DNA of 64,000 nucleotides from Acidimicrobiales bacterium (GTDB lineage Bacteria > Actinomycetota > Acidimicrobiia > Acidimicrobiales > Iamiaceae). The stretch lies in NCBI GenBank assembly GCA_030448105.1, contig JAUJNP010000006.1:11853-75852 (forward strand). The letters run 5' to 3'. Below are positions 31,054 to 36,000 of the stretch, piece by piece. Both the position numbers and the translations under genes were made by a program. Below the pieces are notes generated by a model that saw only the letters and a list, made by a program, of their open reading frames with translations, was not told where the DNA came from and did not search any database. Within the stretch, counting starts at the first letter, position 1; the number at the start of each line of letters is the position of its first letter.

Positions 31054-31350
31054 GTGCCCGCCGAAACCCACGTTGAGCAGGGTCCCATGAGCCGCCAGGA
31101 GGTCTTCGAGCTGGTCCGGGACCGCCTCGCCGACATCCTGGAGGTCGAACCGTCGTCCATCCGCGAGGGCGATTCCTTCAGCGACGACCTCGAGGCCGAC
31201 TCCCTGGCCCTGATCGAGCTGGTGGAGGGGCTCGAGGAGGAGCTGGGGGAGCGCACGGTGGGGTTTCGCATCGACGACGAGGACCTCGAGGACCTGAAGA
31301 CGGTGCGCGACGCCGTCGACTACGTCCACGGACGCCTGGGCCAGAGCTGA
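31054..31350 (+). CDS. acpP: acyl carrier protein
   Basis: 98 aa from GTG 31054, or 87 aa from ATG 31087. AGGAG lies correctly before 31054, whereas the shorter form puts the phosphopantetheine Ser (in ADSLALIELVEGLEE) at residue 39, closer to the usual 36-37. The body is a typical acidic four-helix ACP: VFELVRDRLADILEVEPSSIREGDSF and FRIDDEDLEDLKTVRDAVDYV. It carries acyl chains in fatty-acid synthesis. The stop overlaps the presumed rnc CTG. Confidence 0.9.
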   Translation: MPAETHVEQGPMSRQEVFELVRDRLADILEVEPSSIREGDSFSDDLEADSLALIELVEGLEEELGERTVGFRIDDEDLEDLKTVRDAVDYVHGRLGQS

Positions 31351-32147
31351 GCGCCCTGAGCGTCGCCGACCCGATCGCCTCGCTCGCCGAGCGCCTCGGC
31401 CACCGGTTCCACGACACCGGGCTCCTGGCGCGCGCCGTCTGCCACCGCAGCTGGTGCGCCGAGAACCCGGGCGGCGAGTCGAACGAGCGCCTCGAGTTCC
31501 TCGGCGACGCCGTCCTCGGGCTGATCGTCGCCGACCACCTCTTCGGCGCCTACCCCGAACACGACGAGGGGTGGCTGTCGCGCTCGCGCTCGTCGGTGGT
31601 GCGGGCCAGCGCGCTGGCCGACATGGCCACCGAGCTGCACCTGGGGGAGGCGCTGCTGCTGGGCAAGGGCGAGGACACCTCCGGGGGCCGGGAGAAGCCG
31701 TCGATCCTCGCCGATGCCCTGGAGGCGGTGATCGGCGCGGTGTACCTCGACGGCGGCTGGGCGGCGGCCGAGGAGCTGGTGATGGCCCTGGTACGGGGCC
31801 GGATCTCGGACCTTCCCGGCGGCCAGGGAGACCAGGACGACAAGAGCCGGCTCCAGGAGCTGACGACCCGCCGGCTGCACCAGCCCCCGCACTACACCGT
31901 CGAGGAGACCGGCCCCGAGCACGACAAGACGTTCCGCGCCGAGGTGGTGCTGCTGGGTCGCACCTGGGGGGAGGGCACCGGTCGCTCCAAGAAGCAGGCC
32001 GAGCAGATCGCCGCCCGGGCAGCCCTGACCGCCCTCACCGCCGAGCTCGAACCCGACGGGGGCGCGCCGGCGGTGCCCGGCGCGCCCCCCCTGCGCCTGG
32101 CCCCGCCGGCCCCGCCGGCCGGAATCGAAGAGGCCACCGATGGCTGA
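31347..32147 (+). CDS. rnc: ribonuclease III, probable CTG start
   Basis: 266 aa. The RNase III signature NERLEFLGDAVLGLIVADHLF, the second metal region DALEAVIGAVYLDGG, and a C-terminal dsRNA-binding domain (DDKSRLQELTTRRLHQPPHYTVEETGPEHDKTF...GTGRSKKQAEQIAARAAL) are complete, with a Pro/Ala tail. It processes rRNA precursors and dsRNA. The frame contains no ATG, GTG or TTG before 31596, which lies beyond the catalytic motif, so initiation at CTG is required. CTG 31347 overlaps the acpP TGA (CTGA) and is preferred over CTG 31356. Confidence 0.88.
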   Translation: MSALSVADPIASLAERLGHRFHDTGLLARAVCHRSWCAENPGGESNERLEFLGDAVLGLIVADHLFGAYPEHDEGWLSRSRSSVVRASALADMATELHLGEALLLGKGEDTSGGREKPSILADALEAVIGAVYLDGGWAAAEELVMALVRGRISDLPGGQGDQDDKSRLQELTTRRLHQPPHYTVEETGPEHDKTFRAEVVLLGRTWGEGTGRSKKQAEQIAARAALTALTAELEPDGGAPAVPGAPPLRLAPPAPPAGIEEATDG

Positions 32148-32973
32148 GCTGCCCGAGGTCGAGACCCTCCGCCGCGACCTCGACCGCGAGGTGGTCGGCA
32201 AGAAGATCAAGACGGCCGAGGTGCTGGGCCGAGCGGCGGTCACCCGGCTGCCCAAGAAGCAGTTCACCGCCCGGCTCGAGGGAGCGAAGATCACCGGCGG
32301 GGAGCGGCGGGGTCTGCTCCTCACGCTCAAGCTCGACACCGGTGACCTCCTGGTGTTCGACCTCGGCGACGGCGGCCAGCTGCTCCGGGCGTCGGCCCGG
32401 GAGCCGGTCGCCAAGGGCACCCGGGTGGTGCTCACCTTCACCCAGGGCGGTCAGCTGCGCCTGCTGGATGCCGGCGGCGGGCTCGACGTGTGGGTCACCA
32501 CGTCGGACGAGCTGCTCACCGAGGTGCCAGGCCTGACCGAGCTGGGTCTCGACCCCCTCGACGAACCGATCTCCTGGACCACCTTCGGCCAGCTCCTGCT
32601 CCGCCGGCGGGCCAAGCTCAAGACCATCCTCACCGATCCCACCGCGGTGGCCGGCCTCGGCCCGGTGTACTCCGACGAGATCCTCCACGCCGCCGGCCTC
32701 CGCCACGACCGGGTGTCGAACGGCTTGTCGTCCCAGGAGATGCGCCGGCTGTACCGGGCCCTGGTGGAGACCCTCCACGAGGCGGCCAAGCACCGGGGCT
32801 CCACCCTGGCCGACGGCCACTACCACGACCTCGCCGGCAAGCCCGGCGACTACCAGGGCGAGCTCAAGGTCTACGAGCGCGACGGCCAGGCCTGCAAGCG
32901 GTGCCGGGCGGTGGTCACCAAGGCCAAGGTGGGCGGGCGCACCATCTACTTCTGCCCCGAGTGCCAGGTCTGA
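32140..32973 (+). CDS. Fpg/MutM-family protein lacking the catalytic proline
   Basis: 277 aa with the full Fpg/Nei layout: N-terminal ELPEVETLRRDL, a helix-two-turn-helix region near PTAVAGLGPVYSDEILHAAG, and a C-terminal zinc finger CKRCRAV...GGRTIYFCPEC with the conserved Arg. The N-terminus is MAELPE, not MPELPE, so the Schiff-base nucleophile Pro is Ala; the conserved Lys of the RRAKYL motif is Leu 59, and HLGMSG reads DLGDGG. It may bind damaged DNA without classical glycosylase activity. ATG overlaps the rnc end by eight bases. Confidence 0.82.
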   Translation: MAELPEVETLRRDLDREVVGKKIKTAEVLGRAAVTRLPKKQFTARLEGAKITGGERRGLLLTLKLDTGDLLVFDLGDGGQLLRASAREPVAKGTRVVLTFTQGGQLRLLDAGGGLDVWVTTSDELLTEVPGLTELGLDPLDEPISWTTFGQLLLRRRAKLKTILTDPTAVAGLGPVYSDEILHAAGLRHDRVSNGLSSQEMRRLYRALVETLHEAAKHRGSTLADGHYHDLAGKPGDYQGELKVYERDGQACKRCRAVVTKAKVGGRTIYFCPECQV

Positions 32974-33002: not shown

Positions 33003-33048
33003 TAACGTCGCTCCGATGGCCTTGGCCGTGGGGGCAGCGTGTTCCTGA
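33003..33048 (+). promoter_or_regulatory. smc promoter and possible leader peptide
   Basis: TAACGT (33003-33008) ends seven bases before ATG 33016, which opens MALAVGAACS and stops at TGA 33046-33048, overlapping the smc GTG at 33039. If one G is missing from the G-run at 33030-33034, the same ATG would instead be in frame with smc. Confidence 0.45.
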
Positions 33049-36000
33049 AGACGTTGACGCTCAAGGGCTTCAAGTCCTTCGCCGAGGCCACGTCGTTGGA
33101 CATGGAACCCGGCGTCACCGTCGTCGTCGGACCCAACGGCAGCGGCAAGTCCAACGTGGTGGACGCCGTGGGATGGGTGCTGGGCGCCCAAGCGCCGAGC
33201 GCGGTGCGGTCCCAGAAGATGGACGACGTCATCTTCGCCGGCACCGCCAAGCGGCCGGCCCTGGGCCGGGCCGAGGTGTCGCTCACCATCGACAACGCCG
33301 CCGGCCTGCTGCCCATCGACCTCACCGAGGTCACCATCACCCGCACGCTGTTCCGGTCCGGGGACAGCGAGTACGCCATCAACGGCGTGCCCTGCCGGCT
33401 GCTCGACATCCAGGAGCTGCTGTCGGACTCGGGGGTCGGCCGGCAGCAGCACGTGATCATCTCCCAGGGCCAGATCGACGCCGTGCTCAACGCCCGCCCC
33501 GAGGACCGCCGCCTCGTCATCGAGGAGGCCGCCGGCGTGCTGAAGTTCCGGCGCCGCAAGGAGAAGGCCGAACGGCGGTTGGCCGCCACCGAGGGCAACC
33601 TCACCCGGCTGTCCGACCTCTTGCGCGAGGTGCGCCGCCAGCTCCGGCCGCTGGAGCGCCAGGCCGACGCCGCCCGCCGCCACGGCGCGGTGGTGGGCGA
33701 GCTCACCGCCCTGCGGGTGCACCTCGCCGGCAAGGACCTGGCTCGGCTGCGCGCCCGCCTGGCCGAGGCCGAGCACGCCCGGCAGGAGCTGGCCGGCGAG
33801 GAGCGCGCCACCCGGGCCGACCTGGCCCACCTCGACACCGAGGTGCTGGCCACCGAGGCGAGGCTCTCGGCCATGGGCGGCGACGACCTCGGCGACGCCC
33901 TCGTGCGCTTCGAGTCGCTGCGGGAGAAGGGGCGCGGGCTGGCGTCGCTGCTGGCCGAGCGCCGCCGGGGCATCGAGCGCGATCGGGGGCGTCGGTCGGC
34001 GCGGCCGTCATCGCCTCCCTCGAGGCCGAGGCCGCCCGCCTGGCCGCCGAGGTGGCCGAGGTGGGCGCCGAGGCCGAGGCCCTGGCGCCGGAGGCCGAGC
34101 GCCTGGCCGCCGACGAAGAGGCGTTGGCCGCCGCCGGGCCCGCTACTCGTCGGACTGGGAGGGCGTGGAACCGGCCGCCCCCGGTGGTCGCGTGGTGGAG
34201 GTGCGCGGCGAGCTGGGCGCGCTGCGCTCGGGCGTGGAGCGCGACGGCGCCGAGGTCGGCCGGCTGCGCAGCCGCCTGGCCGCCCTCGACGAGAAGGCGG
34301 GCCGCCTCGCCGCCGAGGCCGAGCATCTCGCCGCCGACCGGGCGGCGGCAGAGGCCGCCCGTGACCCCCTGGCCGCCCGCCTCGCGGGTGCGACCGAGGC
34401 CCGGGCGGCGGCCGAGCAGCGGCTGGCGGCGGCCGAGGAGGCCCGGCGGTCGGCCGACGCCGCCCACCACACCTGGGTGGCGCGGGTCGACGCCCTCACC
34501 CTCACCCTGGACCAGGCCCCGGCCCGGGGCCGGCTGGGCCCGGCTGGCAGCCGTCGCGGGGGTGCTGGGCTCCCTGCTCGACGTGGTGGACATCGACGCC
34601 GGTTTCGAGGCCGCCTTCGAGGCCGCCGCCGGCGACGCCCTCGCCGCCGTCGTGGTCGAGGGTCCTGATGTCGCCCGTCGCGCCATCTCCGCCCTGCTCG
34701 ACGGGGATGCCGCTGGAGCCGTACTGCCCCTACCGGACGAGCCGACGTCCTCGGTTCCGATGACGGGGTTGCGCGCTCACGTCCGGGGCACCCGGCCCGG
34801 GGTGGACGCCCTCCTCGACCGCCTGGTGGGCGCCACCGCCCTCGTCGACGCCTGGCCCGAGGCCCTCGACGTGAGCGGTGCCGACCCGGCCGCCGCGGTC
34901 GTCACCCGCGCCGGCGACCGCTTCGGGCCCACGGGCTGGCGGGTGGGGGCGGTGGGGGCCGGCGCCACCGGCGCCGCCCTCACCGAGGCCCGGGCCCAGG
35001 CGGAGCTGGCCACCGTCGCCGCGGCGCGCGCCGAGCAGCAGGTGGCCGCGGCCCGGCAGGCGGTCGATGGCTCCCGTCGGGTGGAGACCGAGGCGCAGCG
35101 GTCGGTGGACGCCAACGACGCTGCCGTCCACGCCCTCGTCGACGCCGTCGCCAGGGTCGAGGCCGAGAAGGGAGAGGGCGGGGCCGAAGCCGACACCCTG
35201 CGGGCCCACCTCGCCGACCTGGAGCACCGGGTGGCGGGCGAGGCGGACCGGCTGGCCGAGCTGGAAGCCGCGCTGCCCGGCCTGGAGGCGGCCGAGGCCG
35301 ACGCCGCCGCCCAGAGCCGGGCGGTTGCCGAGGCCCGTAGCCGGCTCGAGGAGCAGGCGGCCACGGTGGGCTCGCGCCGCCGCGACCTCGAGCTGAGGTC
35401 CGCCGGCCTGGCCGAACGGCGCCAGTTCCTCGACCGCCGCCGCGCCGAGGTGGAGGAGCGGCTCTCGAACCACGTCGCCGAGCGGCGCTCGGCCGAGGCC
35501 CGCCGGGTGGAGCTCGATCAGCGGGCACTGGCCACCGACCGCCTGTCCGCCCTGGTCGCCAGCCGGCTGGCGGTGGTGGAGGCGGAGGTGGCGTCACTGC
35601 GTGAGCGCCGGCGGCGCCAGTCGGAGGCGGCCCGGGAGGTGGCGGCCGGCCTCGACGCCCTGCGCCGACGCCGGAGCGCGGCCGAGCAGGCGCTCATGGA
35701 GGGCCGCGAGCGACTGCAGCGCGCCGAGCTGACCGAGACCGAGACCACGCTGCGGATCGAGGCGGCGGTGGAGGCCTTGCGGCGCGACCTCGACACCGAG
35801 CCCGAGGCGGCGATGGCCGCCACTCTCCCCGAGGGGTTCGACCACCCTTCGCCGGTGGGTCGTGTGCGTGAGCTCGAACGCGAGCTCCGGCTCATGGGAC
35901 CCATCAACCCCCTGGCGCTGGAGGAGCACACCGCGCTGGTCGAGCGCCACGACTTCCTCTCGGGCCAGCTCGAGGACGTGAAGTCCTCGCGCCGCGACCT

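What the first reader, a model, noticed from the sequence alone, without database searches (positions are those of the whole stretch)
32140..32973. Fpg-family protein without the catalytic N-terminal proline
Classical Fpg/Nei enzymes use the mature N-terminal Pro as Schiff-base nucleophile plus a conserved Lys. Here Pro is Ala, the Lys is Leu, and HLGMSG is DLGDGG, while the DNA-binding helix and zinc finger stay. It may be a lesion sensor, use its Ala amine, or do different chemistry. Its fixed place between rnc and smc suggests a maintained role.
Basis: partly seen in the sequence, partly recalled or inferred. Interest (0 to 1): 0.5.

Follow-up and report, generated by a model that had tools for sequence, protein, structure and literature searches.

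The report
Catalytically dead MutM kept beside rnc
A bacterial DNA-repair enzyme has lost the residues that find and cut damaged bases, yet its gene has been kept intact in its old place across many bacterial families, which suggests that the protein has a second job that needs no catalysis.

Summary
The 277-aa protein at 32140-32973 keeps the Fpg fold (AlphaFold pLDDT 95; Z 34.5 to B. stearothermophilus MutM) but has lost P2, K60, H74, M77, R112, F114 and N174; E3, R264 and the zinc Cys remain. The missing Pro is a side issue: relatives at this locus have Pro or Ala and are degenerate either way. Among 131 rnc-locus orthologues read from Acidimicrobiales, 65 are degenerate (19 families), 65 canonical, one intermediate; no family is mixed. 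The degenerate genes form one clade. A second degenerate clade (19 genes, five families) arose independently elsewhere in the phylum. A canonical MutM (MutM-B) sits at another locus in 59 of 65 and 18 of 19 degenerate genomes (the 19th has a partial match), and in none of 65 and 15 canonical ones. Degenerate genes are under strong purifying selection (median omega 0.05 and 0.03). Both dead clades lost the DNA-lesion cleft but kept subfamily-specific residues, mostly in the C-lobe. Best reading: a non-catalytic MutM pseudoenzyme retained for a second function of an ancestral dual-role protein. The partner is unknown. 'Uses its Ala amine' and 'lesion sensor' are disfavoured.

The parts
32140..32973 (+). 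Fpg-fold pseudoenzyme (degenerate rnc-locus MutM), 277 aa
32143..32145 (+). codon 2: Ala in place of the nucleophilic Pro
   Evidence: position 2 is variable in degenerate orthologues
32314..32316 (+). codon 59: Leu in place of catalytic/phosphate-binding Lys (MutM K60)
32359..32376 (+). codons 74-79: DLGDGG in place of HLGMSG/HLRMEG (H74 and void-filling M77 lost)
32473..32481 (+). codons 112-114: GGG; R112 and F114 of the intercalation triad lost
32542..32808 (+). H2TH domain (aa 135-223), fold retained
32551..32586 (+). D138, W146, F149: part of the conserved set kept in both dead clades
32662..32664 (+). codon 175: Pro in place of the phosphate/lesion-contacting Asn (MutM N174, GNIY->GPVY)
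   Evidence: role of the Asn: PMC4737139, passages
32695..32790 (+). aa 186-217: loop and helix with G186, L187, R188, D190, R191, R202, R203, R206, H213, K217; conserved set (D190 is D in the window)
32893..32964 (+). C4 zinc finger (C252, C255, C272, C275), with R254/R256 and R267
31596..32147 (+). rnc (RNase III), 3' part; overlaps the fpg start by 8 bases; the reading frame is open further upstream
33039..34364 (+). smc, 5' part (frame-broken downstream in this assembly)

Best explanation
The gene encodes a MutM (Fpg) pseudoenzyme. SHOWN by sequence: it descends from the ordinary MutM encoded beside rnc; it lost the catalytic residues and the lesion-binding cleft; the fold is predicted intact; it is under strong purifying selection. 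The same thing happened independently in another part of the phylum. In both cases most genomes carry another canonical MutM (MutM-B) that can do the 8-oxoguanine work. INFERRED: the ancestral MutM of this subfamily had two jobs. One was base excision in the cleft. The other works through a conserved, subfamily-specific set of residues, mostly in the C-lobe (D138, W146, F149, G186-L187-R188, D190, R191, R202, R203, R206, with K24, K50, F100-T101, K217 and R256). When excision became redundant, only the second job kept the gene. It most likely acts as a non-catalytic scaffold or adaptor that binds a protein partner (or nucleic acid backbone) through that surface. The partner is not identified.
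For: Nine signature residues (P2 E3 K60 H74 M77 R112 F114 N174 R264) are bimodal in 131 order-wide orthologues: 65 genes keep 0-3 of 9, one keeps 5, 64 keep 8-9, and frame-split G033 keeps all six readable. Trees built without the trait columns: one degenerate clade in the order (SH-aLRT 90), two in the phylum (starred branches force two changes). MutM-B in 59/65 degenerate vs 0/65 canonical genomes of the order. Outside it, 18/19 degenerate at >=180 bits plus a partial 115-bit, 56% match in the 19th, vs 0/15 canonical f66/f67/f70 at >=180 bits. Omega: order 0.037-0.095 (15 usable pairs, median 0.052), second clade median 0.033 (3 pairs), canonical median 0.041 (7 pairs); window family pairs with finite dS 0.020-0.083. 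Of 85 sites >=90% conserved in 36 canonical subfamily members, 17 fall below 50% in both dead clades, including K59, H74, M77, H93, R112, F114, N175, Y228 and R267. Eight of the 15 subfamily-specific sites are kept at >=84% in both, among them W146, F149, R202 and R206. Mean retention of the nine catalytic residues: 0.15 and 0.18 in the dead clades. Mean retention of the 14-site set: 1.00 and 0.89, against 0.87 in canonical subfamily members and 0.27 in other Fpg. Fold: pLDDT 95.0, pTM 0.90, Z 34.5, rmsd 2.3 over 272 residues to 1r2y_A. E. coli Fpg R108, N168 and R258 mutants are clearly compromised, N168D most (PMC4737139, passages); the Lys is needed for both AP lyase and 5-hydroxyuracil glycosylase of M. 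smegmatis Nei2 (PMC11323726, passages).
Against: Only two independent losses carry the association with MutM-B (one search finds one independent pair in the order, which cannot reach significance). Six of 65 degenerate genomes lack MutM-B: G077 and G109 have a different MutM-like gene (PEKHMRFSR), G039, G074 and G133 only other Fpg/Nei paralogues, G170 no other PF01149 match. The loss is not total everywhere: in the order's 65 degenerate genes R264 is kept in 18, H74 in 6, N174 in 4 and E3 in 53 of 64 scorable. The 14-site set was chosen from the order's degenerate clade; only the second clade tests it independently, and there E200 (0.58) and K50 (0.63) are weaker. Some kept residues may be purely structural, and no coordinates were available to show that they form one exposed patch. 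Much of the first clade has lost three of the four zinc Cys (each kept in 0.32 of 19 family representatives; C272 in all), so the second job does not need the zinc finger there. Two of the 19 second-clade genes (f73: L325, L355) have no rnc within 0.9 kb and instead follow another Fpg-family gene in tandem. No partner, expression or phenotype data.
Confidence: 0.55

Rival explanations
1. Lesion sensor or flag: it binds oxidised or abasic DNA without cutting and hands it to other repair proteins, as alkyltransferase-like (ATL) proteins do (ATL recalled).
For: Fold, H2TH and (in the window) zinc finger and R264 are kept. E3 is kept in 53 of 64 scorable degenerate genes. AlkD2 is a precedent for a non-excising glycosylase paralogue (PMC4433238, abstract).
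Against: K60, H74, N174 and void-filling M77, R112, F114 are mostly lost in both dead clades, as are R32, R35, H93, Y228 and neighbours. Mean net charge is +5.6 in 79 canonical proteins and +1.8 and -1.7 in two degenerate subsets of 30 and 9.
Confidence: 0.13
2. Nucleic-acid binding by another face: the conserved basic helix (R202, R206, H213, K217) binds DNA or RNA backbone, for example in RNase III- or SMC-linked work.
For: R202, R206, H213 and K217 are 95-100% conserved in 65 degenerate genes of the order; on an ideal helix they fall on one side (own reasoning, no call). The gene overlaps rnc.
Against: The operon position is shared with canonical MutM. Net charge is low. H213 is not conserved in clade II.
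Confidence: 0.12
3. Regulatory or heterodimer partner of MutM-B.
For: Close co-distribution with MutM-B in two lineages.
Against: Six degenerate genomes of the order lack MutM-B. The kept set is also present in canonical members without MutM-B.
Confidence: 0.08
4. Still an enzyme with other chemistry, for example with the Ala amine or the Asp that replaces His74.
For: Ala would be exposed after Met removal (recalled rule); E3 is mostly kept. NEIL3 works with Val (PMC11323726, passages).
Against: Ten different residues at position 2, K60 kept in 1 of 65, H74 kept in 6 and otherwise replaced by ten residues (D 23 of 65). Apart from H213 no residue is newly fixed in the order's degenerate clade.
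Confidence: 0.05
5. Relic: a decaying gene, or a translational spacer between rnc and smc with no protein function.
For: It overlaps rnc and could couple translation.
Against: Median omega 0.05 and 0.03, with 2dlnL 58-256 against omega = 1 in the 18 usable degenerate pairs. Full-length open frames (270-284 aa) in 64 of 65 order genes, the exception being L053 at a contig end, and in all 19 of clade II (275-282 aa). A set of charged and aromatic residues near-invariant at about 45% mean identity between families.
Confidence: 0.03

Closest known systems
MutM/Fpg (DNA-formamidopyrimidine glycosylase), e.g. B. stearothermophilus MutM 1R2Y, M. tuberculosis Fpg1 beside rnc
   Same: Whole fold, three Pfam domains, C4 zinc finger, E3, R264; position beside rnc.
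   Different: P2, K60, H74, M77, R112, F114, N174 lost; scores below both NCBIfam MutM equivalog cut-offs (TIGR00577, NF002211) that three canonical controls pass.
AlkD2 (HEAT-like repeat protein, S. mutans)
   Same: A glycosylase paralogue that coexists with the active enzyme and lacks its DNA-recognition element; AlkD2 binds DNA weakly and does not excise (PMC4433238, abstract).
   Different: Different fold; here the dead copy is the orthologue at the old locus and the active copy is the other one.
NEIL3
   Same: Fpg/Nei-family protein without N-terminal Pro; a non-catalytic scaffold role has been suggested (as cited in PMC11323726, passages).
   Different: NEIL3 is an active enzyme with Val; the window protein lacks the catalytic Lys and cleft residues.
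M. tuberculosis Fpg2 (Rv0944)
   Same: Actinobacterial Fpg homologue without the catalytic N-terminus (PMC2734929, passages).
   Different: Rv0944 is truncated; the window protein is full length with point losses.
Alkyltransferase-like (ATL) proteins (recalled, no call)
   Same: Catalytically dead homologue of a repair protein kept by selection.
   Different: ATLs keep the lesion pocket; here the pocket is lost.

Membership tests
Fpg/MutM enzyme (NCBIfam TIGR00577 / NF002211 equivalogs) | Score above the curated cut-off | tested here: not met
   193.7 < 203.3 and 205.9 < 212. MutM-B (L066), canonical L028 and f67 L308 pass; degenerate L007 and L113 also fail.
Fpg/MutM enzyme (NCBIfam TIGR00577 / NF002211 equivalogs) | N-terminal Pro nucleophile and catalytic Lys60 | tested here: not met
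   A2 and L59.
Fpg/MutM enzyme (NCBIfam TIGR00577 / NF002211 equivalogs) | Phosphate pincers H74, N174, R264 | tested here: not met
   D74 and P175; only R267 (=R264) kept.
Fpg/MutM enzyme (NCBIfam TIGR00577 / NF002211 equivalogs) | Void-filling triad M77, R112, F114 | tested here: not met
   D, G, G.
Fpg/MutM enzyme (NCBIfam TIGR00577 / NF002211 equivalogs) | 8-oxoG/FapyG glycosylase and AP lyase activity | not testable with these tools
   Needs the purified protein.
Fpg/Nei structural superfamily | N-lobe + H2TH + Fpg zinc finger, Fpg fold | tested here: met
   PF01149, PF06831, PF06827 above cut-offs; Z 34.5 to 1r2y_A.
NEIL3-type (non-Pro amine nucleophile) | Free amine at residue 2 with conserved Glu and Lys | tested here: not met
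   Glu kept, Lys lost; position 2 unconstrained in orthologues.
AlkD2-like non-catalytic glycosylase paralogue | Coexists with a canonical paralogue and lacks the damage-recognition element | tested here: met
   MutM-B in the window's own genome, in 59/65 and 18/19 degenerate genomes; cleft lost. This concerns what it works like, not homology.
AlkD2-like non-catalytic glycosylase paralogue | No base excision and weak DNA binding | not testable with these tools
   Needs the purified protein.
ATL-like lesion flag | Lesion-binding pocket retained without catalysis (definition recalled) | tested here: not met
   Pocket residues mostly lost in both dead clades.

The most novel reading that the evidence does not exclude
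A whole subfamily of actinobacterial MutM is a two-faced protein: besides excising 8-oxoguanine it carries a second, catalysis-independent function, mainly on its C-lobe. Where a second MutM took over excision, the rnc-locus copy shed catalysis (at least twice) but was kept for that hidden function, so canonical members of the subfamily should have it too.
Probability: 0.45. Interest if true: 0.7.

Novelty: new variant of a known kind. Interest (0 to 1): 0.5.

Why it matters
MutM is a textbook base-excision enzyme. A lineage that keeps the protein after losing its cleft, twice, separates a possible hidden role from the known one and names the residues to mutate. The window protein, like two degenerate relatives tested, falls just below the curated MutM cut-offs while still matching Pfam's three Fpg domains, so such genes are easily named as active enzymes; the nine-residue check distinguishes dead from live copies. 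Searches of the held open-access library for catalytically dead, Pro-less or Acidimicrobiales MutM listed no paper that by title or abstract start describes this lineage.

Tried and rejected
Pro as the key feature: rejected, since Pro/Ala varies within the family. Defence-system link: no PADLOC match. Structured RNA in the window: no Rfam match at gathering threshold. Bio.codonalign YN00 gave no usable dN/dS and was replaced by my own GY94 fit; pairs with dS outside 0.1-3 were left out of the medians. The first AlphaFold model with 20 sequences was mediocre (pLDDT 79.5; Foldseek TM about 0.73) and was superseded by 98 sequences. The SMC-based tree was too weakly resolved to prove one origin in the order (4 changes, shuffled mean 14.6). 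A careful tree of 61 rows needed 2 changes for the label and only 4% of 200 bootstrap trees needed 1, against 1 change in the 132-row quick tree; a single origin within the order is therefore likely, not proven. Whether loss preceded or followed gain of MutM-B could not be settled: intermediate G027 and family f54 lack MutM-B, but their placement has weak support and differs between trees. A surface map of the kept residues was not possible, as no coordinates are released. Three literature searches on MutM residue roles gave none or one paper.

Rows dropped before counts. Order survey: 148 genomes, 11 without a match at 1e-40, 137 with; 131 loci read; six low-scoring loci not read (G080, G131, G143, G148, G164, G169). 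G033 (frame-split) is counted as canonical in the 65. The degenerate label is <=3 of 9 in the order and <=4 of 9 in the phylum set (L347 keeps 4). Position-2 counts are by alignment column; by the start codon as called there are twelve different residues. Phylum survey: 119 genomes, 101 with a match at 1e-25; 53 loci outside the order read for state; the rest not read.

Full report
OBSERVATION. The open frame 32140-32973 (+) encodes 277 aa starting MAELPEVETLRR. It matches PF01149, PF06831 and PF06827 over their cut-offs, and B. stearothermophilus MutM over its whole length. In alignment P2 is Ala, K60 is Leu, H74 is Asp, M77 is Asp, R112 and F114 are Gly, and N174 is Pro; E3, R264 and the four zinc Cys are kept. 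rnc overlaps the start and smc follows.

WHOSE GENE. The window lies in a 3.29-Mb genome in 49 contigs. One genome of its family, G016, has a contig of exactly the length of the Aquihabitans sp. G128 chromosome (4,938,963 bases; L018, L113). Aquihabitans is Iamiaceae, Acidimicrobiales, Actinomycetota, so the window is most likely from that family (inference). The genome holds four other Fpg/Nei members. One, MutM-B (G000:C11:184986-185780), has all nine signature residues and passes the two NCBIfam MutM cut-offs TIGR00577 and NF002211. The window protein misses both narrowly.

IS PRO THE POINT? No. In the window's family 14 of 21 rnc-locus genes have Ala and 7 have Pro. The 20 read across the cleft, window included, have all lost K60 and H74 whatever residue 2 is, and N174 is Pro in 19 and Ala in one. 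The closest relative (L007, 80% identical) and the same-genus partial gene (L069) have Pro, so the window's Ala looks like a late change in an already degenerate protein (inference).

HOW WIDESPREAD. In 148 Acidimicrobiales genomes of at least 90% completeness, 137 had a match and 131 genes were read. rnc was found beside 129 of 131, and smc within the fetched flank of 106. Counting nine residues (P2 E3 K60 H74 M77 R112 F114 N174 R264), the set is bimodal: 65 genes keep 0-3, G027 keeps 5, and 65 are canonical (64 keep 8-9; frame-split G033 keeps all six that can be read). Degenerate genes fill 19 families and the 64 scorable canonical genes 28, with no family mixed. With the trait columns removed, all 65 degenerate genes form one clade (SH-aLRT 90) inside the canonical ones; a smaller careful tree was less clear. 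In a phylum-wide sample 19 more degenerate genes turned up in five families outside the order. Seventeen lie beside rnc; the two of family f73 do not (within 0.9 kb) and follow another Fpg-family gene in tandem. The 19 form a second clade (SH-aLRT 88), and starred branches force at least two losses.

SECOND MUTM. A MutM-B orthologue of at least 180 bits at another locus exists in 59 of 65 degenerate and 0 of 65 canonical genomes of the order, and not in G027. In the second clade 18 of 19 reach 180 bits and the 19th has a partial 56%-identical match; the neighbouring canonical families f66, f67 and f70 have 0 of 15 at that level. Six degenerate genomes of the order lack it: G077 and G109 carry a different MutM-like gene, G039, G074 and G133 only other paralogues, and G170 none. 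In evolutionary terms this is two events, not 84.

SELECTION. Pairwise omega is 0.037-0.095 for 15 usable degenerate pairs of the order (median 0.052), median 0.033 for three pairs of the second clade, and median 0.041 (0.015-0.078) for seven canonical pairs. In the window's family, pairs with finite dS gave 0.020-0.083. The gene is not decaying.

WHAT IS LOST AND WHAT IS KEPT. To avoid choosing sites by the answer, I took the 85 sites at least 90% conserved in 36 canonical subfamily members. Seventeen fall below 50% in both dead clades: R32, R35, K59, Y60, H74, M77, S78, H93, R112, F114, G115, F118, Q167, N175, D225, Y228 and R267. They include seven of the nine signature residues; of the other two, E3 is kept at 0.72 in both clades, and P2 could not be scored in this list because family f67 lacks it (its retention is 0.11 and 0.50). 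The assignment of residues to the cleft is recalled knowledge, apart from those in the cited papers. Among the 15 sites that are subfamily-specific (retained in under 40% of other Fpg), eight are kept at 84% or more in both dead clades: F100, W146, F149, G186, L187, D190, R202 and R206; six are intermediate and F118 is lost. A 14-site set chosen from the order's dead clade scores 1.00 there, 0.89 in the second clade (the independent test), 0.87 in canonical subfamily members and 0.27 in other Fpg. The nine catalytic residues score 0.15, 0.18, 1.00 and 0.94 (19, 19, 36 and 18 sequences). In the order's dead clade the only residue newly fixed relative to nearby canonical genes is H213. So nothing suggests a rebuilt active site, while a non-catalytic set is held.

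STRUCTURE. With 98 sequences AlphaFold gives pLDDT 95.0 and pTM 0.90. VIA-align gives Z 34.5, rmsd 2.3 over 272 residues to the MutM-DNA complex 1r2y_A. The fold is intact; a shared fold shows no function.

MECHANISM. Mutating the matching Arg108, Asn168 or Arg258 of E. coli Fpg clearly compromises it (PMC4737139, passages). In M. smegmatis Nei2 the Lys is needed for both lyase and glycosylase, while P2A spares the 5-hydroxyuracil glycosylase (PMC11323726, passages). Hence the Lys and cleft losses, more than the Pro, make activity unlikely. Since the cleft is lost twice, a lesion-sensing role through it is also unlikely. What is under selection is the fold plus a set that already existed in the canonical subfamily. 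I therefore favour a non-catalytic scaffold or adaptor that keeps an older second function of MutM. The partner is unknown; this step is inferred.

KNOWN OR NEW. Precedents exist for dead glycosylase paralogues (AlkD2, PMC4433238 abstract), for scaffold roles (NEIL3, cited in PMC11323726) and for a truncated Fpg2 in M. tuberculosis (PMC2734929, passages). The searches listed no report of this lineage. It is a new variant of a known kind.

Noticed in passing
L308-L313, L315, L316, L357 (family f67, same phylum): In 9 of 9 genomes read, the rnc-locus MutM is intact at the other eight signature residues but starts M-E-L-P-E, so the initiator Met sits where Pro should be. Start context was printed for eight; L310 and L311 have an in-frame stop directly before the GTG start, which rules out an upstream Pro. 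L308 passes the MutM cut-offs. In 7 of 9 genomes it is the only L028-like hit at 1e-25. It may be a natural MutM that uses the amine of Met1 as nucleophile.
   Followed up: partly
L020 (G027, family f5): Intermediate rnc-locus MutM keeping P2, E3, K60, H74, R112 but lacking M77, F114, N174, R264, in a genome without MutM-B: a possible early stage of the loss.
   Followed up: partly
L198, L200 (family f54): Degenerate rnc-locus gene in genomes with a different extra MutM-like gene (MPEAAEV..., PEKHMRFSR; L283, L294) instead of MutM-B. L182 (Acidimicrobiia bacterium EGI L10123) has a rnc-locus gene with the same motifs as L198; its genome was not examined further.
   Followed up: partly
L325, L355 (family f73, same phylum): The degenerate gene follows another Fpg-family gene in tandem, and no rnc was found within 0.9 kb.
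   Followed up: partly
L043, L046, L047, L049-L053 and relatives (order subclade): Part of the degenerate clade has lost three of the four zinc-finger Cys (for example CxxC to SxxS) while keeping C272 and the Arg between the first pair.
   Followed up: partly
window 33039-35512: smc is frame-broken in this assembly: a relative's SMC aligns in three different frames (33039-33989, 34144-34296, 34502-35512), by assembly error or real.
   Followed up: partly
window 31341-31596: The rnc frame is open well upstream of the first ATG/GTG/TTG (31596) and reads like an RNase III N-terminus there (NERLEFLGDAVLG), so the true start may be a rarer codon or the assembly may be at fault.
   Followed up: no
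L048 (G033): Canonical rnc-locus MutM split over two frames in one genome.
   Followed up: no
L159 and L170: Two different degenerate rnc-fpg-smc loci in one MAG (Zod_Metabat.708), probably a mixed bin.
   Followed up: no
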